Below are positions 2,906 to 20,434 of a stretch of DNA of 29,628 nt, piece after piece (position 1 is the stretch's first letter; every line of letters begins with the position of its first letter). The stretch lies in IMG/VR virus record IMGVR_UViG_3300005253_000281, positions 1 through 29,628 of that record; one strand, written 5' to 3'. The notes under the pieces were generated by a model. The model ran no database searches and had not been told where the DNA came from. It was given only the letters and a program-made list of their open reading frames with translations. This DNA is from a virus. Position numbers and translations under genes: made by a program.

Positions 2906-2944
2906 AGTTGCACCTCCTTCCCGTCTTCATTATCCTATACATAT

Positions 2945-2973
2945 ATTATACCATACTCAATATCCTATGTCAA
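2945..2973 (-). promoter_or_regulatory. Strong leftward promoter, extended -10
   Basis: TTGACA (2973-2968, in CAGGTTGACA), a 17-base spacer, then TATAAT (2950-2945) preceded by TGG. It sits just downstream of the terminator at 3045-3079 and starts a new transcription unit reading into the gene at 2905. Confidence 0.85.
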
Positions 2974-3044
2974 CCTGGCTACTTCCTGTTGCAGGGTGCA
3001 ACACAGTAACTGTACTTACTGCCTTACTTACTAAGTTTATAAGC

Positions 3045-3079
3045 AAAAGAAAAGGACAGAGCGGTAACTAACTCTGCCC
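3045..3079 (-). terminator. Intrinsic terminator ending the 3104-3640 transcript
   Basis: On the minus strand GGGCAGAG (3079-3072) pairs with CTCTGTCC (3061-3054), 8 bp with one G-U and a 10-base loop. It is followed immediately by TTTTCTTTT (3053-3045). This is a textbook rho-independent terminator. It lies about 25 bases past the stop codon of the upstream gene and before the next promoter. Confidence 0.85.
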
Positions 3080-3103
3080 TCAACCTTTGCTACCTGGTGC
3101 TAC

Positions 3104-3640
3104 TTATATTACACCTTCGAGTTTCAGTAGCTTCTGCCTTATGGCATACCTCCAGTTCTTATCAGTACTATGCTCCCATGCCTGTTGAAAGTTCATTCCG
3201 TCTTTATACTCATCTGCCCCATGCCTTGCTAGCATATCATCTGTACTGATGTCAAACTTCTTACCTCCACCTCCACCACCTGCCCTTGATGCTTTTGGTT
3301 GTGCCTTCATAAGGCGTACTGTTGGAGCTTGTTCTCCAAAGTCATGACTTATCCAGATGCCGTCCGCTGCGTCAAGGTCTCCACTATCTATCAGTGGTTT
3401 GAGTGCCTTGAGGTAGATAGCTTTAACCTTATCTACCATACTATCCAGTGCCGCCCGCTTGGCGTCTAGTTCTGACTTCTCCCTTGCTCGGATGATTGTG
3501 TCTATCTTGCGACTGACAGTGGCTACCGCCTTAAAATCACCAGAGTCAAGTGCCTTCTGAAGTTCTGCCTTCAGTTCATCTTCGGTAGGTTCAGCTGTTG
3601 CTACAGCTGCAACCTTAGCAGATTCCTCACCATTACTCAT
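3104..3640 (-). CDS. Coiled-coil protein with Gly-rich linker and shared C-terminal module
   Basis: This is a 178-residue protein. Residues 1-70 are Ala/Glu/Lys-rich helix, likely coiled coil. Residues 70-115 remain helical, a poly-Gly linker (AGGGGGGKKFD) follows near residue 120, and a C-terminal module spans about 151-174 (FQQAWEHSTD...RYAIRQKLLKL). That module recurs in the zinc-finger protein at 1509-1784. The linker implies two independently folded halves. Its SD lies in a small hairpin (3647-3670), and the gene is closed by the strong terminator at 3045-3079, so it may be a single-gene transcript. The function is unknown. Confidence 0.8.
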   Translation of the reverse strand: MSNGEESAKVAAVATAEPTEDELKAELQKALDSGDFKAVATVSRKIDTIIRAREKSELDAKRAALDSMVDKVKAIYLKALKPLIDSGDLDAADGIWISHDFGEQAPTVRLMKAQPKASRAGGGGGGKKFDISTDDMLARHGADEYKDGMNFQQAWEHSTDKNWRYAIRQKLLKLEGVI

Positions 3641-3646
3641 ATTCTT

Positions 3647-3670
3647 CTATCTCCCTTTCTACGGGAGTAG
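3647..3670 (-). promoter_or_regulatory. Hairpin burying the SD of the 178-residue gene
   Basis: On the minus strand CTCCC (3667-3663) pairs with GGGAG (3655-3651) around a 7-base loop. CTA/TAG (3670-3668/3649-3647) extends it across a one-base bulge. GGGAG is the SD, 10 bases before the ATG at 3640. Pairing would limit ribosome access. Confidence 0.45.
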
Positions 3671-3765
3671 TGACGTTACCGCTTCACACCTCCTTAAGTG
3701 CCAATGATGTTTTATTATACCTTTACATCACTTGTTAATGTACTGGTATCACCATCGATACATAT

Positions 3766-3794
3766 ATCATATCACCTACGCCACCTCAATGCAA
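3766..3794 (-). promoter_or_regulatory. Possible weak leftward promoter
   Basis: TTGCAT (3794-3789), a 17-base spacer, then TATGAT (3771-3766) preceded by TGA (extended -10). The -35 matches only 3 of 6 consensus bases. The stretch GATATGATATA resembles the -10 region of the two rightward late promoters. It could drive the gene at 3640; the TATAAT at 3719-3714 is an alternative without a good -35. Confidence 0.35.
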
Positions 3795-3892
3795 CCTTGC
3801 TGAGCTCGGCTGGCGGGAGTTGGCATAGCACAATGTCGCTCATACTCATTCATACTCGCTCATTCATACCTATGCTACCATATCCGTATCAA

Positions 3893-3923
3893 GGTATAAA
3901 AATACCCAGCGTCTATTACTGGG
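3893..3923 (-). terminator. Candidate intrinsic terminator after the 3976-4251 gene
   Basis: On the minus strand CCCAG (3923-3919) pairs with CTGGG (3909-3905) around a 9-base loop, then TATTTTTATA follows. The stem is only 5 bp, so it is probably a modest terminator. Its place about 55 bases past the stop codon of the zinc-ribbon gene fits the end of that transcript. Confidence 0.5.
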
Positions 3924-3975
3924 CTGTATTGGGCTGCTCCACTCGGCAATTACTGAGCGCTACAGGGAAGGGTGT

Positions 3976-4251
3976 CTACTGGGTTTTAAGAGTTAGGTAT
4001 TGGCTTGTGGTTATAGGTTGTTTGCCGCATCTATGACACACCTTGCCTTCGAAATCTCCCTCTGGGTTTGCATAACCACAACTGTCGCATACAAAGTCTG
4101 GGAATGGTAGGTCATGTACCTCATAGTTACCTGTGCTGAGGTCTGACATAAAATCTCCCGCCATATCCTCGCCAAACATTGCTTCCAGTGCGTTGAGCGC
4201 TACTCGGTATATGAGCTTATACCGTTGTACCTCAATAGGAACCGTTGCCAT
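3976..4251 (-). CDS. Zinc-ribbon protein with SD-masked leader
   Basis: This is a 91-residue protein. Residues 1-45 are helical (QRYKLIYRVALNALEAMFGE). A zinc ribbon follows with C55/C58 (CDSC) and C72/C75 (CHRC), the usual spacing for a structural zinc site. The ATG has the SD GGAGGTG, but that SD sits in the 12-bp hairpin at 4253-4292. A dedicated promoter (4364-4336) lies about 85 bases upstream. Expression control looks unusually elaborate for such a small gene, which suggests a dose-sensitive regulator; that last step is inference. Confidence 0.8.
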   Translation of the reverse strand: MATVPIEVQRYKLIYRVALNALEAMFGEDMAGDFMSDLSTGNYEVHDLPFPDFVCDSCGYANPEGDFEGKVCHRCGKQPITTSQYLTLKTQ

Positions 4252-4252
4252 C

Positions 4253-4292
4253 GTTGCTCACCTCCATAATTATTTTACCGAGGTGGAGCAAC
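4253..4292 (-). promoter_or_regulatory. 12-bp leader hairpin enclosing the SD of the 3976-4251 gene
   Basis: On the minus strand GTTGCT (4292-4287) pairs with AGCAAC (4258-4253) and CACCTC (4285-4280) pairs with GAGGTG (4264-4259). There is a single bulged base at 4286 and a 15-base AT-rich loop. The SD GGAGG overlaps the 3' arm. No T-tract follows, so this is not a terminator. It could be a translational switch, an RNA-binding-protein site, or at DNA level an operator-like inverted repeat. Confidence 0.65.
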
Positions 4293-4335
4293 CCGTCAAT
4301 ATTCTATTATTAATGTACTATCTAATTACATAACC

Positions 4336-4364
4336 ATTGTAACATACTAGGTCGTCGTTGTCAA
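4336..4364 (-). promoter_or_regulatory. Leftward promoter, extended -10
   Basis: TTGACA (4364-4359, in CAGGTTGACA), a 17-base spacer, then TACAAT (4341-4336) preceded by TGT. The -35 overlaps the last codons of the upstream gene. It drives the zinc-ribbon gene at 4251 with a leader of about 80 bases that contains the SD-masking hairpin. Confidence 0.8.
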
Positions 4365-4591
4365 CCTGGCTCACAACCATTGGCAGGTGTTGACCTAGCC
4401 CCAGGTCGTTCAACATCACCTAAGCTCATCAAATCGTCCATATCATACCTAGGGTGCCGACCTGTAATATATTTTGCGGGGCTTCCACAGATGCAGGTGC
4501 CACCCATCTGCAACAACTTTTCTAGCCCCCATACGGGTGCCTTACTTTGCAGTGTGATTCTTCTATCTATTGGAGTCAGGAGAATTCTCAT
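4361..4591 (-). CDS. Hypothetical 76-residue protein with CxC motif
   Basis: The frame starts at ATG 4591-4589 and contains C33 and C35 (TCICGSPAKYITGRHPRYD) plus C73, giving at most a partial metal site. The segment has the look of a basic, positively charged loop. No SD is visible before the ATG, so the start is uncertain and translation may depend on the upstream gene. The 3' end overlaps the promoter at 4364-4336. I do not recognise the family. Confidence 0.55.
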   Translation of the reverse strand: MRILLTPIDRRITLQSKAPVWGLEKLLQMGGTCICGSPAKYITGRHPRYDMDDLMSLGDVERPGARSTPANGCEPG

Positions 4592-4628
4592 TCTGGAAAT
4601 AATTACTTACTTACTTTCAGACTGAGCC

Positions 4629-4748
4629 TCAAAGTCGTAAGAGCCCTGACGACATCCTCCGCAGCTTTCTTGGGTTCTTGTTGCTGACCTCCACAGTTAC
4701 ATTAGCAAAGCCGCTCTCCAGTGTCTTAGTTACTTTTATGTTAGTCAT
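4629..4748 (-). CDS. Very small protein gene with an apparent -1 frameshift
   Basis: ATG 4748-4746 has the SD AAAAGGAGGTG. In frame the product is only 39 residues and stops at 4629. The -1 frame from about residue 28 continues as AAEDVVRALTTLRLSLKVSK to a stop at 4603 and looks far more protein-like. The joined 48-residue product resembles the small protein at 5148-5312 (strand, VEV-x-NK turn, then an Ala/Val helix). One extra A in the AAA run after the CCAAG would restore it. It is either a real frameshift or a homopolymer sequencing error; the short frame-0 product is less likely. Confidence 0.5.
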   Translation of the reverse strand: MTNIKVTKTLESGFANVTVEVSNKNPRKLRRMSSGLLRL

Positions 4749-4765
4749 ACTACACCTCCTTTTAC

Positions 4766-5128
4766 TTAGCTTGAACTGAACGGAAACTCCCTAGCATCCC
4801 TGCGCCTCTGTGCTCTGTTAGGCGGTATAATCTGCGGAGGCATTACTTGCTTTTTCAAATCTGCCCGAGTAATATCTGTAGCATAGATACACCCACAGCC
4901 CATACAGATGTCAGTCTTGAAAGCATAGCCAGGAATCTCAGAGCCGATAGGAAGAGCAGCTTCCTTAGTTGGGTCTAGCACAACTCCCTGCCTAACATCC
5001 ATATGGAAACTCCACTCAGGTCTGGCTAGTCCTCTTTCCTTCAGCTCGTTACCCAACTGCTCCAAGAATCTATCCTCAGAACCACAGCTTGGGCAGTTGC
5101 TGAACTCCTTATGAAAGTCCTTTTCCAT
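4766..5128 (-). CDS. Zinc-ribbon protein (120 residues)
   Basis: The start is set at ATG 5128-5126, 9 bases behind AAAGGAGG; a TTG nine bases further upstream is too close to that SD. Cys pairs at 12/15 (CPSC) and 75/78/80 (CMGCGC) are split by about 60 residues, consistent with a zinc ribbon carrying an insertion. A basic stretch (NRAQRRRDARE) lies near the C-terminus. It sits in the leftward operon from 6816-6787. It may be a small transcription- or translation-interfering phage factor, but that is a guess from the fold type only. Confidence 0.75.
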   Translation of the reverse strand: MEKDFHKEFSNCPSCGSEDRFLEQLGNELKERGLARPEWSFHMDVRQGVVLDPTKEAALPIGSEIPGYAFKTDICMGCGCIYATDITRADLKKQVMPPQIIPPNRAQRRRDAREFPFSSS

Positions 5129-5147
5129 TTTGCTCAACCTCCTTTAA

Positions 5148-5312
5148 CTAATGAGTTATAGCTTTCTTAATAGCTAGTTCGCTATTTTCTAACTCGCTAA
5201 TAGCTAGCTTAACTTCTTTCGCTGCCTGCTCAGGTCTACCATCATACACCTTATTATCAATCTCCACCACGTATTGAGTACCCCTAATTAGTGCCGTTGC
5301 TGTTATTCTCAT
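5148..5312 (-). CDS. Small protein (54 residues), strand-helix type
   Basis: ATG 5312-5310 follows AGAGGAGG, located at the end of the upstream gene. The product starts MRITATALIRGTQYVVEIDN and ends in a Lys/Glu/Ala-rich helix, so a beta hairpin followed by a helix is likely. Its layout matches the frame-restored version of the neighbour at 4629-4748, suggesting two diverged copies of one small family. The function is unknown. Confidence 0.7.
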   Translation of the reverse strand: MRITATALIRGTQYVVEIDNKVYDGRPEQAAKEVKLAISELENSELAIKKAITH

Positions 5313-5313
5313 A

Positions 5314-5544
5314 CTATACCTCCTCTGGGATGAATACTAACCAGCCCTTCTGCTCAGGAAGGACATTGATACTAAGCGTTGGAGCGAGCCCATCGGTGTG
5401 CTTGCCTGTCTCTTTTAGTGCTTCTAACATAGCATTAGCACCAGCTTCGTAGATATCAATCTCATCATTCGAAACAGGTTTGCCCTCTTTAATCTCATCT
5501 AGTGCCAACAAAATATGTCTTTCCCAATCCTTAGGTCTCCACAT
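5314..5544 (-). CDS. Hypothetical 76-residue phage protein
   Basis: The start is chosen at ATG 5544-5542, six bases after AGGAGG; a TTG six bases upstream abuts the SD. The N-terminus MWRPKDWERHILLALDEIKEG and the helix YEAGANAMLEALKETG are typical of small helical phage proteins that I have seen near nucleotide-metabolism genes, but no function is established. It ends in a short beta tail (GWLVFIPEEV). It abuts the following small gene with no gap beyond the stop codon. Confidence 0.75.
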   Translation of the reverse strand: MWRPKDWERHILLALDEIKEGKPVSNDEIDIYEAGANAMLEALKETGKHTDGLAPTLSINVLPEQKGWLVFIPEEV

Positions 5545-7901: not shown

Positions 7902-9590
7902 TTGGCAGTTCAGACACAAGATGAAGCACTAAGAATGATGTTCTCTGACAGACGCCTTACCTTAAGCACTCTGTTAGAGATAGAAGATAAGAATCGCCAG
8001 TTAGTTCCTCTAACTCCTAATCCTATACAAGATGACGTCATAGCTAACTCTAGCTGGCGAGATATCTATGTAAAGCCTGGGCAGGTAGGATTTACCTCTA
8101 TCATAGTTGGTGACTTCTACATAGACAACATTACAGTAAATGGCACTGTGTCTGTTATCATAAGCTATGATGAGTTCTCTGCTCAGCGCCAAGTATTAAA
8201 GGCAAAAAGATACCATCGGAGTCTTGAGCGTAAGATTCCTACTATTCCTAGGCTTGACCATAAGTCTGCCACCGAGCTCAGCTGGGAGGATAAGAATACA
8301 GGCTTCTACTCAGTAATGTATATATTCTCAGCCAGAAGTTATATGCTTGGTAGAGGAGAAACCATACATAACTTACTGTTGGATGAGTACGCCTTTTGGC
8401 CTTTGGGTACGCATGAAGCAGTATTTGCCTCTGCTGTTCAACGAGTTCCTCTTAAGGTAGGAACTAAAATCCGCATTGGTTCGACTGCTAATGGCGAGGA
8501 CAATCCTTTCTGTGATATGTATAGAGCAGCTAAGGAAGGTACTGTCATAGGCAAGTCTGTCTACAGGCACCACTTCTATCCTTGGTTTATTCATCCTGAG
8601 TATATTATGTATCCTGATGACCACTTCTGCCTTGATGGGGATGATGTTGACCCGCTATCTAACCTTCAGTCAGATGAGATTATGCTAATGAATCTTATCG
8701 CTACTACGCAGAATCTTGATGAGAAGATGTCTATGGCTAAACTTCGCTGGAGGAGATATAAGAGAGCTGAAATGGCTTCTATGCGTAGAGCAGGAGATAC
8801 TATGTTTATCTTCCCGCAGGAGTATCCTGAGGATGACGAAACCTGCTTTATGACTGCTGGAGACCAAGCCTACAGCGCAGACATCATAACTGACAAGGTT
8901 CATAAATGCATGCCAGCTCCTATTCATAAGGATATTGTAGCAGTTGATAAGGTAACTAAGACTACCATATCTGCTACCTTGGATATCTGGCATGATAGAG
9001 AAGATAATCTAGGCTATCTGATTAGCATTGACCCAGGTAAGGGTAAGATATCAGAATCAGTAGGTCATGTGTGGAGATTCGCTGAAGGCTATAGGACTAA
9101 GGAGGGTGAGGAAATACCTCCGACAATGCAGCACTGCGCTACCTTAGCAGGCATGTATGATGAGTGGGAAATGGCTGAGCTGATGAAGGAAGTAGCTCAC
9201 TATTACAATGGCGGAGTTATCTGCCCTGAAGACAATTTAGACATTGTAAGTCATCTTAGGGACTACCCTGACCTCTACTGGAGGGAGGACGTTAGGTCAG
9301 GTAAGTTTGGTAAGGTTGTAGGCTGGCAGACTAACGTTAGCACTAAGCCTTATATGATAACTGAAGTTAATAGACACTTGAACGATATTGACTGTCAAGA
9401 TATACGCTTCTGGTCTCAGTGTAAGAACATCCGTAGAAACTCTATGGTTAAGAGTGGTATAATGGTAGTAGGAGCAGACGACCACCACGACGCAGGAGCC
9501 ATAGCAATAGTGTGCAGGGATGCTATGCCTATTGCTAGAGGCTATGTAGGTAATACTACTGAAGGCGGCTGGGATGAGAAATGGGGGTAG
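7902..9590 (+). CDS. terL: Terminase large subunit (ATPase and nuclease)
   Basis: This 562-residue motor pumps DNA into the prohead and cuts it. The ATPase domain shows a variant Walker A at 58-65 (KPGQVGFT), Walker B at 158-162 (LLLDE) and a coupling motif GSTANG at 193-198. The linker EYPEDDETCFMTAG (307-320) is typical of large terminases. The RNase H-like nuclease has candidate metal ligands D377 (SIDPG), E443 (CPEDN) and D526/D527/D530 (ADDHHDAG). The start is TTG 7902 behind AGAGG; an internal ATG at residue 12 is an alternative. Length is normal for the family. Confidence 0.93.
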   Translation: MAVQTQDEALRMMFSDRRLTLSTLLEIEDKNRQLVPLTPNPIQDDVIANSSWRDIYVKPGQVGFTSIIVGDFYIDNITVNGTVSVIISYDEFSAQRQVLKAKRYHRSLERKIPTIPRLDHKSATELSWEDKNTGFYSVMYIFSARSYMLGRGETIHNLLLDEYAFWPLGTHEAVFASAVQRVPLKVGTKIRIGSTANGEDNPFCDMYRAAKEGTVIGKSVYRHHFYPWFIHPEYIMYPDDHFCLDGDDVDPLSNLQSDEIMLMNLIATTQNLDEKMSMAKLRWRRYKRAEMASMRRAGDTMFIFPQEYPEDDETCFMTAGDQAYSADIITDKVHKCMPAPIHKDIVAVDKVTKTTISATLDIWHDREDNLGYLISIDPGKGKISESVGHVWRFAEGYRTKEGEEIPPTMQHCATLAGMYDEWEMAELMKEVAHYYNGGVICPEDNLDIVSHLRDYPDLYWREDVRSGKFGKVVGWQTNVSTKPYMITEVNRHLNDIDCQDIRFWSQCKNIRRNSMVKSGIMVVGADDHHDAGAIAIVCRDAMPIARGYVGNTTEGGWDEKWG

Positions 9591-9754: not shown

Positions 9755-9915
9755 GCTTGTCTAATGTTGAGTTAGATAGGCTAGCTGCTGATACAGGGTG
9801 CAGTATACATAACGATATAGAGCATGGCTTATCTATTAGGAAACTAGCGAAGCTGTTTAGTATAGGCGAGGGAGCTGTGGGGGGTACTTTGAAAAGAGGA
9901 AAATATGATGGGTAA
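9751..9915 (+). CDS. Small helix-turn-helix protein (54 residues)
   Basis: The start is TTG 9751-9753, 8 bases after AAGGAG, overlapping the upstream stop. The core DIEHGLSIRKLAKLFSIGEG is a plausible helix-turn-helix (g-SIRKLAKLFSIGEGAV), so DNA binding is likely. It ends inside the start of the next gene (11-base overlap). It could be a late regulator or a DNA-recognition partner of the packaging complex; no family is recognised. The non-ATG start lowers certainty. Confidence 0.6.
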   Translation: MSLSNVELDRLAADTGCSIHNDIEHGLSIRKLAKLFSIGEGAVGGTLKRGKYDG

Positions 9916-10279
9916 TGACTTGCCTAACCATAAGGAAGCTCAGCGTAGATGGTATGATAGTAAAGGTAGAGATCGCTATAGAGTGAAGTCGCTGGGAGGA
10001 AAGTATCTTCCTCCTGGAGAGGAAAAGAGACCATATACTGGCAAGTGTGAGCTGTGCGGAGCGACTTATGAAGATGATAAGAGTAAGTTTCATTATCATC
10101 ATTGGATAGATGAAGAGCCTACTATAGGTATCTGGGTCTGTGTCAAGTGTCATTGGATGATAGAAGCGGTAGATACAGGTTTACTTCAGAAGTATGAAGA
10201 GTTGAAGCCGTTGATTGAGAAGGAGTGCGCTATGAAAATGCTCGGCAGATTTGGTCTGTTGGAGGTAGTTAATGGGTAA
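9905..10279 (+). CDS. HNH-like zinc nuclease
   Basis: This 124-residue protein has C48/C51 (CELC), a His cluster HYHHW at 63-67, and C79/C82/H83 (CVKCH), the treble-clef layout of HNH and endonuclease VII-like enzymes. The N-terminus (KEAQRRWYDSKGRDRY) is the basic helix common in that group. The usual final Asn/His of the HNH helix is not obvious, so activity is not assured. HNH proteins beside terminase and portal genes often assist cos-type DNA cutting during packaging. The second Met (9908) is an alternative start. Confidence 0.75.
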   Translation: MMGNDLPNHKEAQRRWYDSKGRDRYRVKSLGGKYLPPGEEKRPYTGKCELCGATYEDDKSKFHYHHWIDEEPTIGIWVCVKCHWMIEAVDTGLLQKYEELKPLIEKECAMKMLGRFGLLEVVNG

Positions 10280-12041
10280 GAACGCTACTGACATTATAAC
10301 TAGATGCACTGAATTAAAAAATTTCTGGAGTCCGAGAGATGAAAAAATGAAACAGTGGTATCGGATGATAGAGATGGTTGATGAACTGAAAACTGAGAAG
10401 ATGGAGTCATTTGTAGGTAATGACCCTAGGTCACTGTATAACTTGGTACTTCATCTACTTGATGCTGACATACCTCATAGGATTAAGGAGTATAGCTCTA
10501 CTGACCCTGAGATGACTGCTGCTGTAGCTAGTGTTAGTGGATTCTTCAAAACTGCTTGGAAGGATGTGCATAGAACCTTCCGCAAGACTAACCCTAGGCA
10601 GAGTCTCCAACGTACTTCACTAGGTTTTATGCTAGCAACTGGTTGGTATGCTGATTTTGCTCTGGTTACTGATGATGGCTCTAGATGCTATGATGAGCCT
10701 TGGAATCCTATTGAAGTTTATCCTATGTGGGATGCTATGCTAGGGCTCAGTGAAGTAGCTCATATATTCAGAATCAGTAGTACTCAGGCTACTACTATGG
10801 CTAAGAAGAATGGTTGGGCATTAGGAGGTAACTACCGTCAGTGGAGAGCTACTGTTGGCAGAAACATTACTATCTACGACTACTGGTGGATAGAGATATC
10901 TGATGAGTTTCCTTTCAATAAGACGGTATGGAACGCGATAGTAGTAGATACTGTACTAGTGAAGTTTGGTCAGACTAGGTTCCGCAGAATGCCCATATAC
11001 ATAGCTCCAGTAGGTGGGCTACCTGATATGGGGGCTTTGACTGAGGGAGTACTGCCTACATATTCATCTACCCTTAAGTTACACACTCAAGATGCTGGCG
11101 TAGATAGATGGAAGGCTGAGATTGGGCAGGCTATTATAGCAACCAATGAGAACATCTACCGCACCTGGAATAAGTGGTGGAGCTTCAGTCTACAACTACT
11201 GAGGGATACTGCTCAGCCTAGAATCTTTGAACGAAGCAGAAGTGGCAAGGCTATAGTCAAGCCTGAGGATGTCTTCCGCAGAGGAGCTATATTCAGAGGA
11301 GGTCCTGATGACTCCGTAGACTTTATAGGCACTCCACCTATACCTCTAGAGCTCAGGAGTACTCAACTTGACTTGGAAGCTATGATGCAACGAGGTGGTG
11401 TCAGTTGGTCTATGTTTGGTAATGTTCAAGGTCAGATAACTGCCTCTGTCATGAGTCAGATAGCTGCCTCTGCTAATCAGGTAATTAAGCCTTTCCATCA
11501 GGCTTTCATTAACCGCTATGAGGATATAGACAATGACTGGTTTGCAGATATCAGAGAGCGTGGAGTTAAGCCTTATGGCTGGAAGTATCCGTCAGTACTG
11601 CCAGATGATGTATTTGTAAGTGCTGACTATGACATTGAAATACCTGGAGACCTAGTTCAGAGGGCAACTACTGCTCGTATGCTTGACCCTGACTTCAGAC
11701 TAAGCTATAGCTATGTTATAAAGAAGCTGTTCCCTGATATTGAAGACCATATGCAGGAGAGGGCTCAGGTTAGAGCTGACCAGGCTGAGATGCACCCGTC
11801 TAATGCCTTGATAGCTCTTATCCAATACTATCGTAGGCAGGCAGCTTATCTGGCTAAGATAGGAGATAGCGGAACTGCCAGACTTTATGAGTCAGTAGCT
11901 GATGCTACCCTAGCTATGCTGACTGCAGAGACTCAGCAGCAACAACAGCCTGAGCAGGTAGCTATGAGAGCTGGCAGACCCGAGACTACACCTCAGCGAG
12001 CTCAAATACCAGAGAGAGCAGCTGAGACAGGAGGACAATAA
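10272..12041 (+). CDS. Portal protein
   Basis: This is a 589-residue protein directly after the packaging genes, in the usual slot and size range for portals, the dodecameric ring at the DNA-entry vertex. The N-terminal third is alpha/beta with an aromatic-rich segment (IYDYWWIEI near 210). A long helical region around 360-430 includes VMSQIAASANQVIKPF, typical of portal stem/crown helices, and the C-terminus is Gln-rich. It overlaps the HNH-like gene by 8 bases and shares one base with the giant gene that follows. Assignment is by position and general sequence style; no catalytic motif exists for this family. Confidence 0.8.
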   Translation: MGKNATDIITRCTELKNFWSPRDEKMKQWYRMIEMVDELKTEKMESFVGNDPRSLYNLVLHLLDADIPHRIKEYSSTDPEMTAAVASVSGFFKTAWKDVHRTFRKTNPRQSLQRTSLGFMLATGWYADFALVTDDGSRCYDEPWNPIEVYPMWDAMLGLSEVAHIFRISSTQATTMAKKNGWALGGNYRQWRATVGRNITIYDYWWIEISDEFPFNKTVWNAIVVDTVLVKFGQTRFRRMPIYIAPVGGLPDMGALTEGVLPTYSSTLKLHTQDAGVDRWKAEIGQAIIATNENIYRTWNKWWSFSLQLLRDTAQPRIFERSRSGKAIVKPEDVFRRGAIFRGGPDDSVDFIGTPPIPLELRSTQLDLEAMMQRGGVSWSMFGNVQGQITASVMSQIAASANQVIKPFHQAFINRYEDIDNDWFADIRERGVKPYGWKYPSVLPDDVFVSADYDIEIPGDLVQRATTARMLDPDFRLSYSYVIKKLFPDIEDHMQERAQVRADQAEMHPSNALIALIQYYRRQAAYLAKIGDSGTARLYESVADATLAMLTAETQQQQQPEQVAMRAGRPETTPQRAQIPERAAETGGQ

Positions 12042-15000
12042 TGGTAGAACCACCACAGTTACCTCCGCCTCCTCAGCCTCCAGAGCCTTTTCCTGGCTTT
12101 GGCAGAGAGCTAGAGCAGTTAGGTATATCTCAGTTTAAGGCTCAAACCAGGCTTATGGAAACTGAGAAGAAAAGGGCTACTGCTGAGCAGGCTTTTATCC
12201 TTGGGGGTAGAACTGGGTTTCTTGCTCAGTTCTTTAGACCAGCTAGGAAGACTCCTCTGCCTGGTGGAGGTCTTTCTGTTTTTCCAGTTGCAGTTCCTCT
12301 TGAGATTCTTAAGCAGGAACTACTCCAAGCTCAGCAGGAGTATGACTTAGCTCTTCAGGAGATGAAGTCTAACCGCTGGCGTCAGGAGGTAATGATAACT
12401 CTGCCAAACTATCTGTCTCTGCCAGATTATAAGATACAGAGCCCTGAGGATATACTTAACTATATGCCTCTTGATTCTATGACCGAAGCAGATACAACTT
12501 GGCTTAATCTGACTTATGACCGTCTGAAGCACCTATCTAATGTGCTGCCAGAAGGCTTCACTGGGGATGCTATGGAAGCCCAGACTAAGGTGCTGAACGA
12601 AGTCCTTACCGCTCCTAAACTGGAACTGAGAGGTATTCATAACCTTACTGTAGAGGAGCTAGCTAAGTCTTTCCAGTTCGGGGTAGCTGAGCTTCCACAA
12701 GGTATGTCTGAGGAAGATGTTAGGAGTATCCTTAGCCAGATGGACTTGCAGGAAGAGGAACTGAAGGATGTTAAGATCTGGTTGACTGAGAGAGCGATAA
12801 GCTGGGAAATAGAGTCAGGTAAACTGAATCTTCTCCGTGCTGGACTAGTACTACCAGAAGAGCCAGAGCTGACTCCTTGGGAGTTTACCAAGCTAGCGGC
12901 TACTCAGCCCATGATGGCAACAGTAGAGCTACTGGATAAGTACTGGAATATGCTTCCTAGACCAGCTGTAGCCGCATCTATTATAGGTTTCCATAGGCTA
13001 CTTAATCTTGGTGCCGCAACTTCCGAAGGTACTGCGGCTGCTAGACTGGAAGAGGGATATGAGTTCTACCGCTCTATGGGTTTGAGTAGCTGGGATTCAT
13101 ATGCTAAGTCCTTTAATGAGTGGGACGCTCCTTGGTGGTTAAAGATAGCTGCTGAATCCGCCTTTGACCCTCTTATGTATATTGGCTTTGGGCTAACAAC
13201 TGCTGCTGCATACAAAATAGGAACTGGGCTTACTCGGGTCGGTCTTAGGACTGTAGGAACTAGGATAGGTCCTTGGGTAGGAGCCTTTCATGGAGGCTAT
13301 GTTGCTGGTGCAGATGCTGTGTTCAAGGCTGGAGTGCAAGTATTCTTAGCTCCTATCAAAGGCTCATTCTGGCTAACTGGCGTAGGTTATCAGATTCCTA
13401 AAACCGCTACTCAGATGGCTAGGAACTTCGCCCGCAAGAGCATAATGGACTTCAACGCAGTATTAGGCAGAACCTTTCCTGAAGTACGCAACCTTAAAGG
13501 ATTGACGGTAAAGGACTTGACTGGCACTGCTGACAACGTTATCAATCAGGCTCTGGCTAGACCTATGGAGGGACATGACCTGGCAGTTAGAGCTGGGGCT
13601 AATCTGTTGGAGTTCAACTACATAGATGACCTAGCAGCTAGGAAGATGGTAGCTGGCGTTAGAGAGCCTATCTTAGGTCCTACTGGAGAAGTAATATCTG
13701 AAGTTGGCGGAGAGATAGCATTTGATACTGTCCGCCTAGCTCGCTTTAACAATGAAGTTCTCAATATGTTCTCTGGTCAAGGTGAGAGGATAACAGCTGG
13801 TAAGATAATAGCTGACTTAGGACAGGAAGCTACTGAGGAGGCGGTTACTAATGTATCTGCCAAGCTAGTTACCTTTAGAGAGAAGATAGCTAAAGCTGCT
13901 CTAGTTGCTGTCAAGGGGGATGCTCCTCAGGATGTTATACTCAACGTCTTTAACCGCTTGGAAGGTATCCGCTTCAGCAATATCCATAGTCCTATGACTC
14001 CTCATATGACTCAGGCTGGGAGGTCTGTTAGCTGGGTTACTAGGGTGGCAGACAAGATGCTGTATTCTACTCAGCTAGTAGCTTTAGAGAGGCGGCTAGT
14101 AATGCCTCTAGCTAGATGGAATCTGCTGTTCACTAACTTTGGTCCTTATAACTTCACTGAGAATATGGGTAGGAGCTTCTTAGGAGGCGGTGAGATAATG
14201 TATCCTAAGAGTTACAGTGGGGTAGCAGAAACTAATAGGCTATTCAAAGGACTGGCTGGAGCTCCTTATGAACTTCAACTAATGGAGCGAGGTGAGGTAC
14301 GATTAGCTCAAGCTATGATAGACCCTAAGACTGGCAAGACAGCAGTGTTTCAGAGAGGTAAAGTACCATTTGTAACTAGGGAAGTAACCATACCTGAGAA
14401 GGTTCCTTTCTTAGGTGGTAAGACTATAGGTGCCAAGATTAACTTAGCTGGGCGAGACCACTACCTAGCATCCTTCCAAGACGCTTACGATATGTGGGGG
14501 CACTTCAACTCTAAGCAGGTAGCCTTTGATTATCAGACTCACTATATGAAGTCTCTGGCTGAGATAGCTCCAGATAATATGAAAGGGCTAGTGGATAATG
14601 TAGCTAATCATAGAGCAGAACTAGATAATATATCTGCTATATCTAGTAAAGATGCTAGGGATATAGAACGAGTACTGCTACAGGATTCTACTGTAGGACC
14701 TGAGGCTGTCAGAGCTCACGCTGACCTGGATGTACTGGAGTTTGAGCGGAGGCAGGTTAGCAAAGAACTCTACAAGACTATGGATAGGATGACTGATGTC
14801 CGTGCTATTACTAAGGTTGGTATTAGAGATGAAGTGCTAGGCGGCAGTATCTTCAAAGACATAGATGGCAGGATAGCAGCTTATGTAGAATCCGAGAGGG
14901 AGCTAAGCCTTATCAGCCTGAAGAATCAGATGGATGTGCTGAAGAAGGAAGCTGATACTTTCTTAGCTAACCCTCCTCGTAACCTTAATGAGTTCCTTGG

Positions 15001-18000
15001 AGATATGCAGAACATGACTGCTATGGTAGAGGGCACTGGGGAGAGAATACACGACTATAGGAAGCTAACCGAGTTGAGGAAAGCTAGGCTATCTCCAGCT
15101 GACTTTGATGACTTTGAAGTAGGCTCAGCTAAGCTACTGGCTGAGTTTATGGAGACAAGTGAAGAGCAGCTTACTAAGATAATGAATCAGTTAGGAGAGA
15201 ATGCTAGAACCGTTGTAACTACTAATCTGGAACCTGAGGAGATGACTAGACTGCTCCAGAGTAGGATAAGATATCTAGCTCCAAATGAGTACTTAAGGGG
15301 TCTGGGTAAGGCTCCTAGGGGTAGAGAGTTTGGGTTGGCAGGGCAATTCTTTACTAGGAGCCTTGACGATGCTGGATACTACGGACCTTCTTATATTAGA
15401 GCGACCATTAAGCCTAAGAACTCTTTGGACTGGCGAGGAGATGCTCAGTCGTTAGCAGACTCTATTGGCATAGGCAAGGAGTTTGGCGAGCTTGGAGGTT
15501 CTGGGCATCCGACTGCTGAGGAGTTTCTGATAAATAAAATAAAGTCTTCCGAGCAAGGCTTTGATGCTTTTAGATTGTATGCGGACGCGCCTGGTGAGGA
15601 ACTCATAGTAGTTCTGGACGATTCTATAATTAATATATCCAAGAGATTCACGATAGGTACTGGAGAGTCAGTTTTGAATGAAGTTCAACTAGCTCGCCTT
15701 ACCGACCTTGACTCTATCTCTCGCCTTGAACTTGAGAACATCCTAGCAACCCGCAACAAGGTAGCTGGGATAGAAGCAATCATACCTACAACTCCTAAAG
15801 GCAAAAGGAATGAAAGGTTCTGGCAGCAACAGCGAGCTCAGAAGGCTATCATCTGGGATGAGTATGATGGCAATGCTAGGAAGTTTAAGAGCCTTAGACT
15901 AAGAGCTAGCCGTAACTTTCTTGCATCAGTAGACAAACCAGTATTCACTCCTGACTTCGTTCCAGAAGTAACTGCTGAGCTTACGCCTAACCATCTAGCC
16001 TATCTGTATGGAGCAACTGGGGATGACCTATATAGAGGACTTACTAGAGTGCAGCATCACATAACTATACGACCAAGAGAAGACTTCATCTTACATACTG
16101 CAGAACAAGCAGACGCTTATGCTGCTAAGTTTAGCAAGACAGCATCTGATATGGGCTTTACTGATGAGGCTATAGGAGAAGTCTATGACCAGCTCTGGAG
16201 GAATCAAGGCATAGAGCCTAGTATCCTGACTCCTGATAGTCCTACAGTAATGCAGCTAGAGGAGATAAGGCAGGAGCTGACAAGGTTACATGGTAGTATG
16301 AAGATTCCTGATTCTGATTTAGTTAAGTGGCGTCAGTATGTCAACTCAGTAGCAGATGATGTAGAGAAACTGCCAATGTATAAGGTAGTTACTACTGCTG
16401 AAGCTCAGCTGGAGAGATTAACTGGTATAAAGGCTGATTATGCTAAAGTCGCAGTCCAGTCTGCTAGGCAGATAGCCAGAGATGCTGGAGTGGATATTAA
16501 GAATACTTCTATTATAGGTAGCTTCTTAGGGAAGAAAGCTCCAAAGGATATAGATATTCTTATCACAGTTGATGATGCTTCCAAACTACTAAACAAGAGG
16601 ATTAAAGCTCCTGAGTTCGGTGGAAGGCCTATAGACATATTTGTAACTGACGGCAAGGTTAAGTATGCCACTGTTCAGGTGTCTCCTCAGGACGTTGTGT
16701 TTAAGCCTAGGGACTTCGGTATTCCTACCGACTTACCGAAAGCTGCTCCAGCAGGAGGTACTACTGACTGGTGGTCTAACAAAGAATCTGCTATGACTAG
16801 GGCTCGTGAGCAGCACGCCTTATCCTTCCCTACCTATGACGATTCTAATGTAATAGATGAAGCAATGCGAGCTATCTTCCCCTTCTGGAACTATGAACTA
16901 TTCCGCTGGCGCTGGATACCCAGGACTTGGATGAGGACTCCTGGGACTATGACAGGACTAGCCCGCTACGTTAACTATACTGACCAAGGTTATCTACCTA
17001 TACCTGCTACTGACCTTCAGATAAACATCCTTAGAGGTTCTGTCTGGATGGGTGGTCTCCGCTCTATGTATCTCCGTGACTTCCCTGAATACTACGATGC
17101 TATGCCAGGTATGGAACTTATCGACTATATCGGCAGAATGGGCTTCTTTCCGGGCTTTCATGTTATGGCTCCTATTGTGCTCTTTGGAGCTACTGTAGGA
17201 GGCAAGCCTGAGCTGGCTCAGTTAGCTCCTGCTTGGATGAGAACTACCTTATCAGCTATGAGAGCTCTATCTCCTGAACATATAGGAGCAGTATTAGAGT
17301 TCATCTACCCCGACCGCTTCCGTGACTTTCAGACTATGTTAACTCTAGCAGGACAAGGCTATGATGCTGATGAAATCTGGCGGAAGAAGAAGCAGAACCA
17401 ACCTATAACTGAGGAGGAAGAGAAGCTCTGGCTACAAGCAGTGAATAAGGTTGACGGTGTTAAAGGTATCCTTATGCAGCAGACTGGTCTATTCAGAATC
17501 CGTCCCGATGAGTATACTCAGATAAGAAAATCTATGCGCCTAGCTATTGAGGAGGCTACTGGAGTACCTGTATCTACTCAGGAGCATATTGACAGGCTGT
17601 ATCCAGTAACAGGTAAGAGGTTCTCTGACTACTATCGCCTAGATATACTACAGCAAAAGCTCCTCTATGAGTTTGAAACTTACCGTAGATGGCAGGGAGT
17701 TACTACTCCGCTCTATCCTTCTAGCTGGCAGGTGCTGGATGTAAAGATAAGAGACTACTATCAAGAGGTAGAGCGAGTATATGAAGATGCTAGACACTTA
17801 GGAACTTATGAGGAAGGAGAGCTAGTCCGTCCCAGTATGGTAGAGATTAACCGCCAACTGGTAGATGGTGTGATAGGTCCTGACCAGTGGAGAGCTATGC
17901 GTAGTGATATACAAGGTAGTCTAGCAGAAGCTGTCAGAGTGTTAGGAGAATCTCCAGCCTATAAGGATGTGCCTAAGACCTTTGAAGAGCGTGCTCTAAT

Positions 18001-18577
18001 GCTAGAGGAGAGAGGTATTACTACTCCTACTCAAGGTGCTGACCAAGAGCTGCTCTACTACTACTTTGAGCTCAAGCCTGAGTATAAGTGGAGCTGGGAA
18101 GCTCAGCGCATGGAGAGGGACTTTGATACCTACTACACTCATATTGATATTCTGTTAGAGTCTCTGGATGCTGCTCACCGAGAACGCCTGATACAGAGAA
18201 TACAGTTTGACTGGACTCCTATGGAGAGGCTCTACTGGCAGATTAGCCGAGAGCATATCAGACCATACAGGAATCTCCGTAGCATAGTATTATCTGAGTA
18301 TACTCCTGAGGAGGTTCAACAGATACGTCGCTTTGAAGTAGCTCGTGGCGTTGAGCGGGAGGAGCTACAGCAGGTGTTAGGTCCTGACGGTCTGAAGCTT
18401 ATAAGTGGCTTTGCTAAACGTCTCCGAGAAGCTCGTCAGCGCTTCAGAATCCTTGACCCTCTGACAGATGCATGGCTTAACTTCTTTGGCACTACAGATA
18501 AGTTAATGAGTGCTCAGGCTAAGGAAATATATGATGGACTTCTGAAGCAGTTCTTAACTTCGGAGATGGTTGAGTAA
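12041..18577 (+). CDS. Giant multidomain virion-associated (polyvalent) protein
   Basis: This is a 2178-residue protein between portal and scaffold. It begins with a Pro-rich tail (PPQLPPPPQPPEPFPGFG), then long helical regions. Near 360-450 are Gly/Ala-rich semi-hydrophobic segments. Around 1085-1200, GQFFTRSLDDAGYYG followed by IKPKNSLDW and PGEELIVVLDD resembles the STS and E-x-E strands of ADP-ribosyltransferases (weak). Around 1485-1545, IIGSFLGKKAPKDIDILI with G1493, S1494, D1503, D1505 and a later D1532 (RPIDIFV) matches a pol-beta-type nucleotidyltransferase. The C-terminal 600 residues are helical with a hydrophobic patch (FHVMAPIVLFGATVGG). It is probably packaged and ejected with DNA. 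Confidence 0.75.
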   Translation: MVEPPQLPPPPQPPEPFPGFGRELEQLGISQFKAQTRLMETEKKRATAEQAFILGGRTGFLAQFFRPARKTPLPGGGLSVFPVAVPLEILKQELLQAQQEYDLALQEMKSNRWRQEVMITLPNYLSLPDYKIQSPEDILNYMPLDSMTEADTTWLNLTYDRLKHLSNVLPEGFTGDAMEAQTKVLNEVLTAPKLELRGIHNLTVEELAKSFQFGVAELPQGMSEEDVRSILSQMDLQEEELKDVKIWLTERAISWEIESGKLNLLRAGLVLPEEPELTPWEFTKLAATQPMMATVELLDKYWNMLPRPAVAASIIGFHRLLNLGAATSEGTAAARLEEGYEFYRSMGLSSWDSYAKSFNEWDAPWWLKIAAESAFDPLMYIGFGLTTAAAYKIGTGLTRVGLRTVGTRIGPWVGAFHGGYVAGADAVFKAGVQVFLAPIKGSFWLTGVGYQIPKTATQMARNFARKSIMDFNAVLGRTFPEVRNLKGLTVKDLTGTADNVINQALARPMEGHDLAVRAGANLLEFNYIDDLAARKMVAGVREPILGPTGEVISEVGGEIAFDTVRLARFNNEVLNMFSGQGERITAGKIIADLGQEATEEAVTNVSAKLVTFREKIAKAALVAVKGDAPQDVILNVFNRLEGIRFSNIHSPMTPHMTQAGRSVSWVTRVADKMLYSTQLVALERRLVMPLARWNLLFTNFGPYNFTENMGRSFLGGGEIMYPKSYSGVAETNRLFKGLAGAPYELQLMERGEVRLAQAMIDPKTGKTAVFQRGKVPFVTREVTIPEKVPFLGGKTIGAKINLAGRDHYLASFQDAYDMWGHFNSKQVAFDYQTHYMKSLAEIAPDNMKGLVDNVANHRAELDNISAISSKDARDIERVLLQDSTVGPEAVRAHADLDVLEFERRQVSKELYKTMDRMTDVRAITKVGIRDEVLGGSIFKDIDGRIAAYVESERELSLISLKNQMDVLKKEADTFLANPPRNLNEFLGDMQNMTAMVEGTGERIHDYRKLTELRKARLSPADFDDFEVGSAKLLAEFMETSEEQLTKIMNQLGENARTVVTTNLEPEEMTRLLQSRIRYLAPNEYLRGLGKAPRGREFGLAGQFFTRSLDDAGYYGPSYIRATIKPKNSLDWRGDAQSLADSIGIGKEFGELGGSGHPTAEEFLINKIKSSEQGFDAFRLYADAPGEELIVVLDDSIINISKRFTIGTGESVLNEVQLARLTDLDSISRLELENILATRNKVAGIEAIIPTTPKGKRNERFWQQQRAQKAIIWDEYDGNARKFKSLRLRASRNFLASVDKPVFTPDFVPEVTAELTPNHLAYLYGATGDDLYRGLTRVQHHITIRPREDFILHTAEQADAYAAKFSKTASDMGFTDEAIGEVYDQLWRNQGIEPSILTPDSPTVMQLEEIRQELTRLHGSMKIPDSDLVKWRQYVNSVADDVEKLPMYKVVTTAEAQLERLTGIKADYAKVAVQSARQIARDAGVDIKNTSIIGSFLGKKAPKDIDILITVDDASKLLNKRIKAPEFGGRPIDIFVTDGKVKYATVQVSPQDVVFKPRDFGIPTDLPKAAPAGGTTDWWSNKESAMTRAREQHALSFPTYDDSNVIDEAMRAIFPFWNYELFRWRWIPRTWMRTPGTMTGLARYVNYTDQGYLPIPATDLQINILRGSVWMGGLRSMYLRDFPEYYDAMPGMELIDYIGRMGFFPGFHVMAPIVLFGATVGGKPELAQLAPAWMRTTLSAMRALSPEHIGAVLEFIYPDRFRDFQTMLTLAGQGYDADEIWRKKKQNQPITEEEEKLWLQAVNKVDGVKGILMQQTGLFRIRPDEYTQIRKSMRLAIEEATGVPVSTQEHIDRLYPVTGKRFSDYYRLDILQQKLLYEFETYRRWQGVTTPLYPSSWQVLDVKIRDYYQEVERVYEDARHLGTYEEGELVRPSMVEINRQLVDGVIGPDQWRAMRSDIQGSLAEAVRVLGESPAYKDVPKTFEERALMLEERGITTPTQGADQELLYYYFELKPEYKWSWEAQRMERDFDTYYTHIDILLESLDAAHRERLIQRIQFDWTPMERLYWQISREHIRPYRNLRSIVLSEYTPEEVQQIRRFEVARGVEREELQQVLGPDGLKLISGFAKRLREARQRFRILDPLTDAWLNFFGTTDKLMSAQAKEIYDGLLKQFLTSEMVE

Positions 18578-18672: not shown

Positions 18673-19329
18673 ATGAGTGAAGAGAACCAGAAGGTAACTG
18701 ATGGTGCTTCTGGCGACGGAGAAGGTAAGACAACTCCACCTCCCGCTACTACTGTTCCTAAGGTGGAAGTTAAGGAGGGTGCGACCTTTCTTGATGGTAA
18801 GAAGGTTGTTCTTGAGTCTGACTTAATCGCTGCTAAGAAGAGTTTAGAAGGGCAAATGGAGCAAGCCCAGACAGTTCATAGTGATGCCATAGACAAGGCT
18901 AAGCTTGAGGTGTCTGAAGCACAGCAACAGATTGCTACTCTAAACGCTAATATCAAGGAGAATGAAGAAGCCCGTAAGACGGGTGCAGTTTCTGATGAGG
19001 AAGCTGCGAGAGTCAAGCAGGAATTAGAGACTACTAGGAGTAGTTTGGAGCAGGCTAATAGCTCTGCTCTGGAGCATCGCAGGGCACTTATTGTAATGAA
19101 ATACGGAGTGCCTGAGGATACTATCAAAGACAAGACATCAGAACAGCTTGATTCTTTCGAGGAGGCTGCTAAAGCCTTCGTAACAGTTAAAGGCGGTGCT
19201 GTTGGACCTTATGCAGTAGGAGGCGGAAGTGCTGATGCTGCTCCTCAGACTAATATAGAGAGGGCAACTAAGATACTTGAAGCTACTCCTATACGAGGTG
19301 TTAGCAATGCTGCTCTGGCTGACAAGTAA
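18673..19329 (+). CDS. Scaffolding protein
   Basis: This is a 218-residue, highly charged, Ala/Glu/Lys/Gln-rich protein. Residues 1-35 are disordered, 45-140 form a long coiled coil (LEGQMEQAQTVHSDAIDKA), and the C-terminus is a short Gly/Ala tail with a final helix. This composition and the place directly before the major capsid gene are standard for scaffolds, which shape the procapsid and then leave or are digested. There are no protease residues. The gene sits immediately behind promoter copy 2 with a good SD. Confidence 0.85.
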   Translation: MSEENQKVTDGASGDGEGKTTPPPATTVPKVEVKEGATFLDGKKVVLESDLIAAKKSLEGQMEQAQTVHSDAIDKAKLEVSEAQQQIATLNANIKENEEARKTGAVSDEEAARVKQELETTRSSLEQANSSALEHRRALIVMKYGVPEDTIKDKTSEQLDSFEEAAKAFVTVKGGAVGPYAVGGGSADAAPQTNIERATKILEATPIRGVSNAALADK

Positions 19330-19354: not shown

Positions 19355-20434
19355 ATGGCTGATTCAGGCGGGCATTGGAGTAACTTAGCAGCTGCGCAAA
19401 AGTTAACCCAGTCCATGAAAATTCCTGGTGTCTTTGAGGAAGACATCAAACGCAACAATCCTATTGATAGGCTTACCGTAGGTCAGGCGGCTCATAGCGG
19501 ACTCAAGATAGAGTGGTTGAGAGAGCAACCAGCTGCAGTAGCTTCTATAGAAGCTGCAGTAAATGATATAAGTATTGGTGAGCAACTATCTTGGACTGAG
19601 GATGTAGACTACGATGAGAAGGAATCTACTCTTCGCACTTGCTATATCCAACGGAAGCTTGACCACTATGTCCAAGGTATCTACGGAACCTACAACAACT
19701 ACGAAGCACGGAAGCTTCTGGAGTCTGAGAAAGGACTCAGGCGGAAGATTGGAGCTAGGATAATCTATGCTGATAATACCTATACCTCCACTAAGCAGTT
19801 CGATGGTATTCATGCACTAGCGGCAGAACACGGTTCTCCATATACTGCTGGCAGTAGCAACGACCCTAAGAACATAGATAATGGAGATGTAGGGCTTAGT
19901 CTCGCCTTCCTAAGAATAATGATAGACGAGATGAAGCAAGGTGTAGATGAGCTCTGGGCACCTTTTGAAGTTATCCGCAGAATGGATGCTGCCTATCAGG
20001 AACGAGGATTTCTACAAGCAGCTGCCAATACTACTAACCTTGCCTTCCTAACCCTAGGCTACAATGACCTCGGCAAGCGAGTACTGTTCTGGGACGGTCT
20101 TCCTATCATCAGGACTGACTACCTCGTAGCTGAGGACGACGACACTGGAACTGGTGGAAGCTCAGATGCACGAGCACTCTATGTCTCTGGTGATAAGGTC
20201 TACTCCATCTTCGGTATCAAGCATGGTAACGTGATGAACCAGGAGCCTGGTCTAACCTACGCCTACGGTGGAACTGAAGGTCTTGGTGATCTTTACAAGC
20301 TAGTAAGATTTCCTGAACTGGAAGACTACGATGCTGGCGGAATTAGGCTGGTTAACTACTCCACCTTACTGCTTGGCTCTAGCTTCTGCCTAGGAAGAAT
20401 CTTTGACATCCAAGACGTGGCGATAACTATTTAG
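19355..20434 (+). CDS. Major capsid protein
   Basis: This 359-residue protein follows the scaffold gene by 25 bases. Its size, the mixed alpha/beta content, a long central helix (LSLAFLRIMIDEMKQG, near 180) and aromatic beta segments with a late Gly-rich loop (TYAYGGTEGLGDLY) fit an HK97-fold coat protein. The SD AAAGGAGC lies 10 bases before the ATG. Codons here appear more selective (AAC, TAC, ATC endings) than in neighbours, as expected for the most abundant virion protein. No direct family signature is seen; the call rests on position, length and style. Confidence 0.85.
   Translation: MADSGGHWSNLAAAQKLTQSMKIPGVFEEDIKRNNPIDRLTVGQAAHSGLKIEWLREQPAAVASIEAAVNDISIGEQLSWTEDVDYDEKESTLRTCYIQRKLDHYVQGIYGTYNNYEARKLLESEKGLRRKIGARIIYADNTYTSTKQFDGIHALAAEHGSPYTAGSSNDPKNIDNGDVGLSLAFLRIMIDEMKQGVDELWAPFEVIRRMDAAYQERGFLQAAANTTNLAFLTLGYNDLGKRVLFWDGLPIIRTDYLVAEDDDTGTGGSSDARALYVSGDKVYSIFGIKHGNVMNQEPGLTYAYGGTEGLGDLYKLVRFPELEDYDAGGIRLVNYSTLLLGSSFCLGRIFDIQDVAITI

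What the first reader, a model, noticed from the sequence alone, without database searches (positions are those of the whole stretch)
12041..18577. Giant protein with nucleotidyltransferase and possible ADP-ribosyltransferase domains
A 2178-residue protein between portal and scaffold carries a GS...DID...IDIFV set (G1493, S1494, D1503, D1505, D1532) that fits a pol-beta-type nucleotidyltransferase, and a weaker FFTRS...EELIVVLDD set near 1096-1195 that resembles an ADP-ribosyltransferase fold. Enzymes fused into a probably packaged protein would be injected with the genome and could modify host targets at once (known for T4 Alt, and proposed for polyvalent proteins). The GS-to-D spacing (8 residues) is shorter than usual, so activity is open.
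Basis: partly seen in the sequence, partly recalled or inferred. Interest (0 to 1): 0.75.

Follow-up and report, generated by a model that had tools for sequence, protein, structure and literature searches.

The report
Phage giant protein with swappable enzymes
This virus of microbes makes one very large protein that, in related viruses, carries different small enzyme modules slotted into the same few positions; here it holds an ADP-ribose-transferring fold and a likely nucleotide-transferring domain, so it looks like an interchangeable payload carrier for the start of infection.

Summary
The 2178-aa ORF and all named residues are at the stated positions. Three full-length relatives (L002, L004, L005) lack both. 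Others carry unrelated domains at the same sites: ART, nucleotidyltransferase, GNAT, HExxH-type, helical. 29 of 31 non-redundant inserts fall in four short stretches covering 59 of 1896 positions. Sister phages L002 and L003 (88.8% DNA identity) differ by three whole cargo domains. Insert A is an ART: AlphaFold pLDDT 77; Foldseek hits a phage pre-ejectosome chain, PARPs, an anti-CRISPR protein and phage ART-PolyVal proteins; it is homologous to a cargo at another site in L031. Insert C is probably a minimal pol-beta NTase: motif, profile evidence with controls, and a bona fide NTase at the same site in L021; its own structure model failed. Packaging and ejection are inferred from late head-gene position, absence of a tape-measure-sized ORF, and Gly-zipper segments in relatives; not shown. 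Best read as a new chassis-type variant of phage polyvalent proteins.

The parts
12041..18577 (+). Giant late protein, 2178 aa: conserved backbone (about 1,900 aa) plus two cargo inserts
   Evidence: 72% identity to insert-free L005 (1896 aa)
12041..15211 (+). Backbone N-terminal part, residues 1-1057 (empty site E at about residue 974, near 14960)
   Evidence: collinear with relatives
15212..15667 (+). Cargo insert at site A, residues 1058-1209: ADP-ribosyltransferase fold (YLRG 1084-1087, FTRS 1104-1107, GEELIVVLDD 1185-1194)
   Evidence: absent in L002/L004/L005; AlphaFold pLDDT 77; Foldseek; BLASTP 4e-8 to L031 site C cargo
15668..16384 (+). Backbone between sites A and C, residues 1210-1448; contains empty site B at about residue 1422
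16385..16747 (+). Cargo insert at site C, residues 1449-1569: probable minimal pol-beta-type nucleotidyltransferase (G1493 S1494 D1503 D1505 D1532)
   Evidence: absent in L002/L004/L005; motif statistics; profile search with controls; Pfam-positive NTase at the same site in L021
16748..18577 (+). Backbone C-terminal part, residues 1570-2178, including FPFWNYELFRWRW, where relatives carry intein-like insertions
7902..9590 (+). Terminase large subunit
   Evidence: tblastn to annotated TerL, best E 4e-23
10272..12041 (+). 589-aa protein in portal position; conserved next to the giant gene in relatives, no family match
   Evidence: no match; position only
18673..19329 (+). Scaffold-position protein, 218 aa
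   Evidence: weak PHROG head maturation protease hit, 9.9e-4; position
19355..20434 (+). Major capsid protein
   Evidence: PHROG 212 major head protein, 2.2e-9

Best explanation
The ORF is an internal virion protein of a ~42-44 kb phage that acts as a delivery chassis. A conserved backbone, made with the head proteins and probably packaged (it is encoded between the portal-position protein and the scaffold), is ejected with the DNA. Small enzyme domains sit in a few fixed, insertion-tolerant sites in its middle third (sites E, A, B and C) and are exchanged between phages, presumably by recombination. In this phage site A holds an ADP-ribosyltransferase and site C a minimal nucleotidyltransferase. 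On entry they would transfer ADP-ribose, and probably nucleotides, onto host molecules (defence, transcription or toxin-antitoxin targets) to favour the infection. SHOWN: ORF, insertions, fixed sites, exchange, and the ART fold by prediction. SUPPORTED: NTase identity. INFERRED: packaging, ejection, catalysis, host targets.
For: Insertions: two inserts absent from full-length relatives with 72-73% identity. Unrelated cargo at the same sites: NTase in L021 (PF01909 32.1 bits against a 21 cut-off), GNAT in L010 (PF00583 24.4 against 20.7), ART in L029 (ART-PolyVal PF18760 31.4 against 31.2). 29 of 31 inserts lie in four stretches totalling 59 of 1896 positions; the maximum of 2000 uniform simulations was 13. 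At least 15 changes of site C content on a tree of 26 giants. Sisters L002/L003 are 88.8% identical in DNA over 4708 bases yet differ by three cargos. Window site A cargo is homologous to L031 site C cargo (4e-8), so one cargo family occurs at different sites. ART: pLDDT 77; PDB hits are cyanophage A4 pre-ejectosome chain 9k3a_B 2.4e-4, PARP4, anti-CRISPR 6kyf, tankyrase, diphtheria toxin; 40 BFVD hits at E<=1e-3, including ART-PolyVal and MuF-fusion proteins and a vRNAP. NTase: a profile of this insert plus the L021 and L003 NTases hits 30 NTase-superfamily chains out of 31, best 0.015; without it the signal is weaker; with a non-NTase cargo in its place it vanishes. Ejection: late head-gene neighbourhood; relatives L006, L012, L021, L024-L026 and others add a Gly-zipper hydrophobic segment at backbone ~315; no second ORF above 1,000 aa in the late regions read.
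Against: No virion proteomics or functional data; packaging is by position only. The portal assignment has no family support. The NTase insert has no significant single-sequence NTase hit in Pfam, PDB, phage or plasmid records, is not clearly separated from shuffles by the L021 or two-sequence profile, and its model has pLDDT 49 with no NTase fold hit. ART TM-scores are modest (about 0.4-0.6) and Pfam does not recognise the insert. Insert GC does not differ from the backbone, so there is no compositional sign of recent import. Host unknown.
Confidence: 0.62

Rival explanations
1. The inserts are inactive or structural decorations: enzyme folds retained as spacers or capsid/DNA-contacting modules, with no catalysis in the host.
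For: Several cargos are helical domains of unknown function (L001, L003, L009); some zincin-like cargos have incomplete motifs (HEIGD in L009); complete relatives do without any cargo.
Against: Cargo belongs repeatedly to enzyme superfamilies (ART, NTase, GNAT) with motif residues kept; the window NTase keeps all three acidic positions and GS.
Confidence: 0.17
2. Polymorphic-toxin-like system: cargos are toxins that kill the host or competing phage carriers, as in MuF toxins, rather than early take-over effectors.
For: Overlapping enzyme classes and a similar genome position (beside portal and head genes) to MuF-fused effectors described for phages (PMC5576092, PMC9503650).
Against: Cargos are internal, not C-terminal; no integrase was noticed in the regions read (not searched systematically). 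No immunity gene was looked for systematically.
Confidence: 0.12
3. The variation is an artefact of metagenome assembly (chimeric contigs).
For: All relatives are metagenome-derived contigs.
Against: In-frame insertions of 70-180 aa at the same sites in many contigs; the same cargo architecture recurs in contigs from different samples (L010/L011/L015; L023/L028; L031/L032).
Confidence: 0.02
4. The inserts are decayed or minimal self-splicing/mobile elements (intein-like), not cargo.
For: Intein-like insertions do occur in this protein at other sites (L002, L026, L059).
Against: The window inserts give no intein match, cargo inserts are 70-180 aa against about 300 for the intein-like ones, sit at other positions, and several belong to known enzyme folds.
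Confidence: 0.03

Closest known systems
Phage polyvalent proteins (Iyer et al. 2017, PMC5512222)
   Same: Large multidomain late protein near head genes carrying ART, GNAT, NTase and metallopeptidase-type domains, predicted to enter the cell with the DNA.
   Different: Backbone matches no Pfam or PHROG family. The effectors are exchangeable insertions at fixed internal sites of one conserved chassis. [quoted passage not shown]
MuF-fused phage effectors / MuF polymorphic toxins (PMC5576092, PMC9503650)
   Same: Effector domain attached to a head-associated protein encoded among head genes; variable enzymes including ARTs.
   Different: MuF effectors are C-terminal fusions; here no MuF domain was detected and the cargo is internal, at up to four sites.
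Ejection proteins of short-tailed phages (T7 gp16, N4-like vRNAP; PMC8954989)
   Same: Large internal proteins with swappable enzymatic domains such as the lysozyme domain found in gp16 or in gp15 homologues; the ART insert's best PDB hit is a chain of the cyanophage A4 pre-ejectosome.
   Different: No sequence similarity to solved ejection proteins; much greater cargo diversity at fixed sites.
T4 Alt
   Same: Packaged ART injected with the DNA to modify host proteins (PMC5512222).
   Different: Alt is a separate protein of a distinct ART clade; no similarity found here.
MNT/minimal nucleotidyltransferases (PF01909)
   Same: GS...DhD...hD motif; joint-profile hits include 1wot, 2rff and 5yep (Mnt-family antidote).
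   Different: GS-to-D spacing is 8 (10 in L021, 13 in L003); below Pfam detection on its own.

Membership tests
Phage polyvalent protein | Two or more enzymatic domains of different activity in one large polypeptide | tested here: met
   ART and probable NTase in one ORF; the NTase half is less certain
Phage polyvalent protein | Encoded among late virion genes | tested here: met
   TerL and MCP flank it; order conserved in L002, L004, L005 and others
Phage polyvalent protein | Packaged and injected with DNA | not testable with these tools
   needs virion proteomics
Phage polyvalent protein | Recognised polyvalent-protein (LPD) domains in the polypeptide | tested here: not met
   no Pfam hit in the window protein or in L005/L033; ART-PolyVal only in cargo of relatives L025/L029. 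I therefore claim similarity of mode of action and architecture, not descent from a described polyvalent family
ADP-ribosyltransferase | ART fold | tested here: met
   model pLDDT 77; Foldseek to PARPs, anti-CRISPR 6kyf, diphtheria toxin, ART-PolyVal proteins
ADP-ribosyltransferase | Catalytic triad positions (basic residue in strand 1, S/T-or-Y motif in strand 2, acidic/amide in strand 5) | tested here: inconclusive
   R1086, T1105/S1107 and E1187 fit by alignment with other cargo ARTs; geometry not inspected, activity untested
ADP-ribosyltransferase | NAD-dependent ADP-ribosyl transfer | not testable with these tools
   needs an assay
Pol-beta-type nucleotidyltransferase | GS ... DhD ... third acidic residue | tested here: met
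   G1493 S1494 D1503 D1505 D1532; 64 of 400,000 shuffles
Pol-beta-type nucleotidyltransferase | Profile membership (PF01909) | tested here: inconclusive
   not detected alone; joint profile with L021/L003 gives 30 of 31 NTase hits, controls none, but best E is only 0.015
Pol-beta-type nucleotidyltransferase | NTase fold | tested here: inconclusive
   pLDDT 49, no informative hit; predicted order of helices and strands is compatible
MuF polymorphic toxin | MuF domain with C-terminal variable toxin | tested here: not met
   no MuF match; cargo is internal
Intein | Splicing motifs in the insert | tested here: not met
   window inserts give no intein hit; by contrast the L002 insert does, though below the cut-off

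The most novel reading that the evidence does not exclude
A dedicated virion cargo chassis: a conserved ejected scaffold protein with several defined docking sites at which phages of one lineage plug in and exchange effector enzymes, so that each phage delivers its own pre-made effector set at the moment of infection.
Probability: 0.5. Interest if true: 0.82.

Novelty: new variant of a known kind. Interest (0 to 1): 0.66.

Why it matters
If the protein is ejected, this lineage offers a natural catalogue of host-targeting enzymes, each readable by position as 'whatever sits in sites E, A, B and C', and a natural protein-delivery scaffold that tolerates domains of 70-180 aa at defined sites. Comparing near-identical phages with different cargo (L002 against L003) would make the function of injected effectors directly testable.

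Tried and rejected
Whole-protein Pfam, PHROG and phage tblastn searches gave nothing. Searches for close relatives of either insert alone in viral contigs, phages and plasmids found none (the ART insert was not tried against plasmids). Two scans of bacterial/archaeal genomes with backbone alignments found no relative, so the host is unknown. The backbone profile matched no solved structure. The NTase fold search was uninformative because of a poor model. The L021 or L021+L003 profile alone did not separate the window NTase from shuffles, so the NTase call rests on the motif and on the controlled joint profile. Recent foreign origin by GC was not supported. An NCBIfam hit of insert C to a kinase model (3.3e-4 but 19.5 bits against a 528 cut-off) was rejected as spurious. 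The assembly-artefact and intein readings were rejected (see rivals).

Full report
WHAT WAS CHECKED. The full protein has no Pfam or PHROG hit above threshold and no tblastn match in 50,697 phage records. The window is a 29,628-base virus record.

RELATIVES. Scans of viral contigs gave a family of giant proteins, from about 72% backbone identity to the window down to about 45%, directly downstream of the same ~590-aa portal-position gene and, where sequence continues, upstream of scaffold- and capsid-position genes. TerL is identifiable, and so is the capsid protein (PHROG 212, 2.2e-9). The longest contigs of relatives are 42-44 kb.

THE TWO 'ENZYME' REGIONS ARE INSERTIONS. Against the insert-free, full-length backbone of L005 (1896 aa), the window protein has two large insertions: residues ~1058-1209 (site A, backbone 1049) and ~1449-1569 (site C, backbone 1288). 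L002 (apart from an intein-like insertion), L004 and L005 lack both and keep open, full-length frames. Other relatives carry different domains at the same places. At site C: Pfam-positive NTase (L021), GNAT (L010/L011/L015) and ART-PolyVal (L029; L025 just below the cut-off), further ART-like sequences by motif only (L012, L022, L023, L030), an ART homologous to this window's site A cargo (L031), HExxH-containing domains (L026; degenerate in L009) and helical domains (L001, L003). At site A: an NTase-like domain in L003 and an ART-like domain in L023. A third and fourth site (B, backbone ~1263; E, ~967) are used in other lineages.

NOT CHANCE. 29 of 31 non-redundant cargo inserts fall in four stretches totalling 59 of 1896 positions; in 2000 uniform simulations the best four 21-residue windows never held more than 13. 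On a backbone tree of 26 giants, site C content (states assigned by hand) changes at least 15 times. The sister phages L002 and L003 are 88.8% identical in DNA over 4708 aligned bases, yet L003 has three cargos that L002 lacks and L002 has an intein-like insertion. The same architecture recurs in contigs from different samples, so it is not an assembly artefact.

SITE A CARGO IS AN ART. AlphaFold on an eight-sequence alignment gave pLDDT 77 and pTM 0.66. The PDB fold search returned a chain of the cyanophage A4 pre-ejectosome first (2.4e-4), then the PARP4 ART domain, an anti-CRISPR protein (6kyf; from my own knowledge the ART AcrIF11), tankyrases and diphtheria toxin. The viral library gave 40 matches at E<=1e-3, led by ART-PolyVal-like proteins and including a MuF fusion and a virion RNA polymerase. 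R1086, T1105/S1107 and E1187 align with the positions shared by the other cargo ARTs; catalysis is inferred.

SITE C CARGO IS PROBABLY A MINIMAL NTASE. The motif is rare (64 of 400,000 shuffles; two occurrences in 150,084 aa, both in cargo). Added to the L021 and L003 NTases it yields a profile whose PDB hits are 30 of 31 NTase-superfamily chains, best E 0.015. Without it the signal is weaker. Two other cargo domains put in its place abolish the signal. Against this: no single-sequence detection, no separation from shuffles with the L021-based profiles, and a failed structure model.

HOW IT PROBABLY WORKS (inference). The gene sits in the late head cluster. No second ORF above 1,000 aa was seen in the late regions read of L026, L005 and L031, so there is no obvious long tape measure, which fits a short-tailed phage with a large internal protein. 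Divergent members insert a Gly-zipper hydrophobic segment at backbone ~315, as expected of a protein that meets a membrane. I therefore favour an ejected internal protein that carries exchangeable effectors: the ART would ADP-ribosylate a host molecule, and the NTase would transfer a nucleotide to a protein or RNA (Iyer et al. suggest protein substrates for the polyvalent NTases). Packaging and ejection are not shown.

COMPARISON. The closest concept is the phage polyvalent protein (PMC5512222): same enzyme classes, same genomic context. Two differences matter. Effectors here are insertions into fixed sites of one conserved chassis and are swapped between close relatives. And pol-beta NTases were reported there only from polyvalent proteins of conjugative elements. 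MuF effectors are C-terminal; known ejection proteins show swapping of a lysozyme domain (PMC8954989), but nothing of this diversity was found in the papers read. The literature search covered only open-licence papers.

VERDICT. Observation confirmed. Interpretation partly supported (ART well, NTase moderately, injection untested). The more interesting fact is the interchangeable-cargo architecture: a new variant of a known kind.

Noticed in passing
L002:6826-7761, L026 (backbone 1335 and 1364), L059:3502-4398; L004 TerL 2743-5415: Intein-like insertions in the giant protein at FPFWNYE^LFRWRW and YVE^NTDQGY in three relatives, and an insertion with a LAGLIDADG-like match in L004 TerL. Pfam support is below cut-off or absent.
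   Followed up: partly
L006, L012, L021, L024-L026, L029, L033, L034, L037-L039 (backbone about 315-330): Gly-zipper, transmembrane-like segment of about 40-55 aa present in divergent giants and absent from the window's lineage.
   Followed up: partly
L001:11073-11522, L009:11100-11543 and 12177-12677, L003:9741-10202: A helical cargo family with a conserved 'DKVIAID' stretch, found at sites A and B and duplicated within L009; no significant Pfam match where scanned.
   Followed up: partly
L030:10788-11183, L031:10881-11261, L040:2147-2521, L054:11761-12177, L059:1642-2025: A conserved site E domain (possibly GNAT-like by eye, no Pfam support where scanned) restricted to one clade of giants.
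   Followed up: partly
L039:3879-4409: Insert with an HEAGH zincin-type motif at backbone ~549, outside the four common sites.
   Followed up: no
window 9905-10279: Small ORF between TerL and the portal-position gene with paired CxxC and HH residues resembling an HNH endonuclease; related ORFs in L003 and L004.
   Followed up: no
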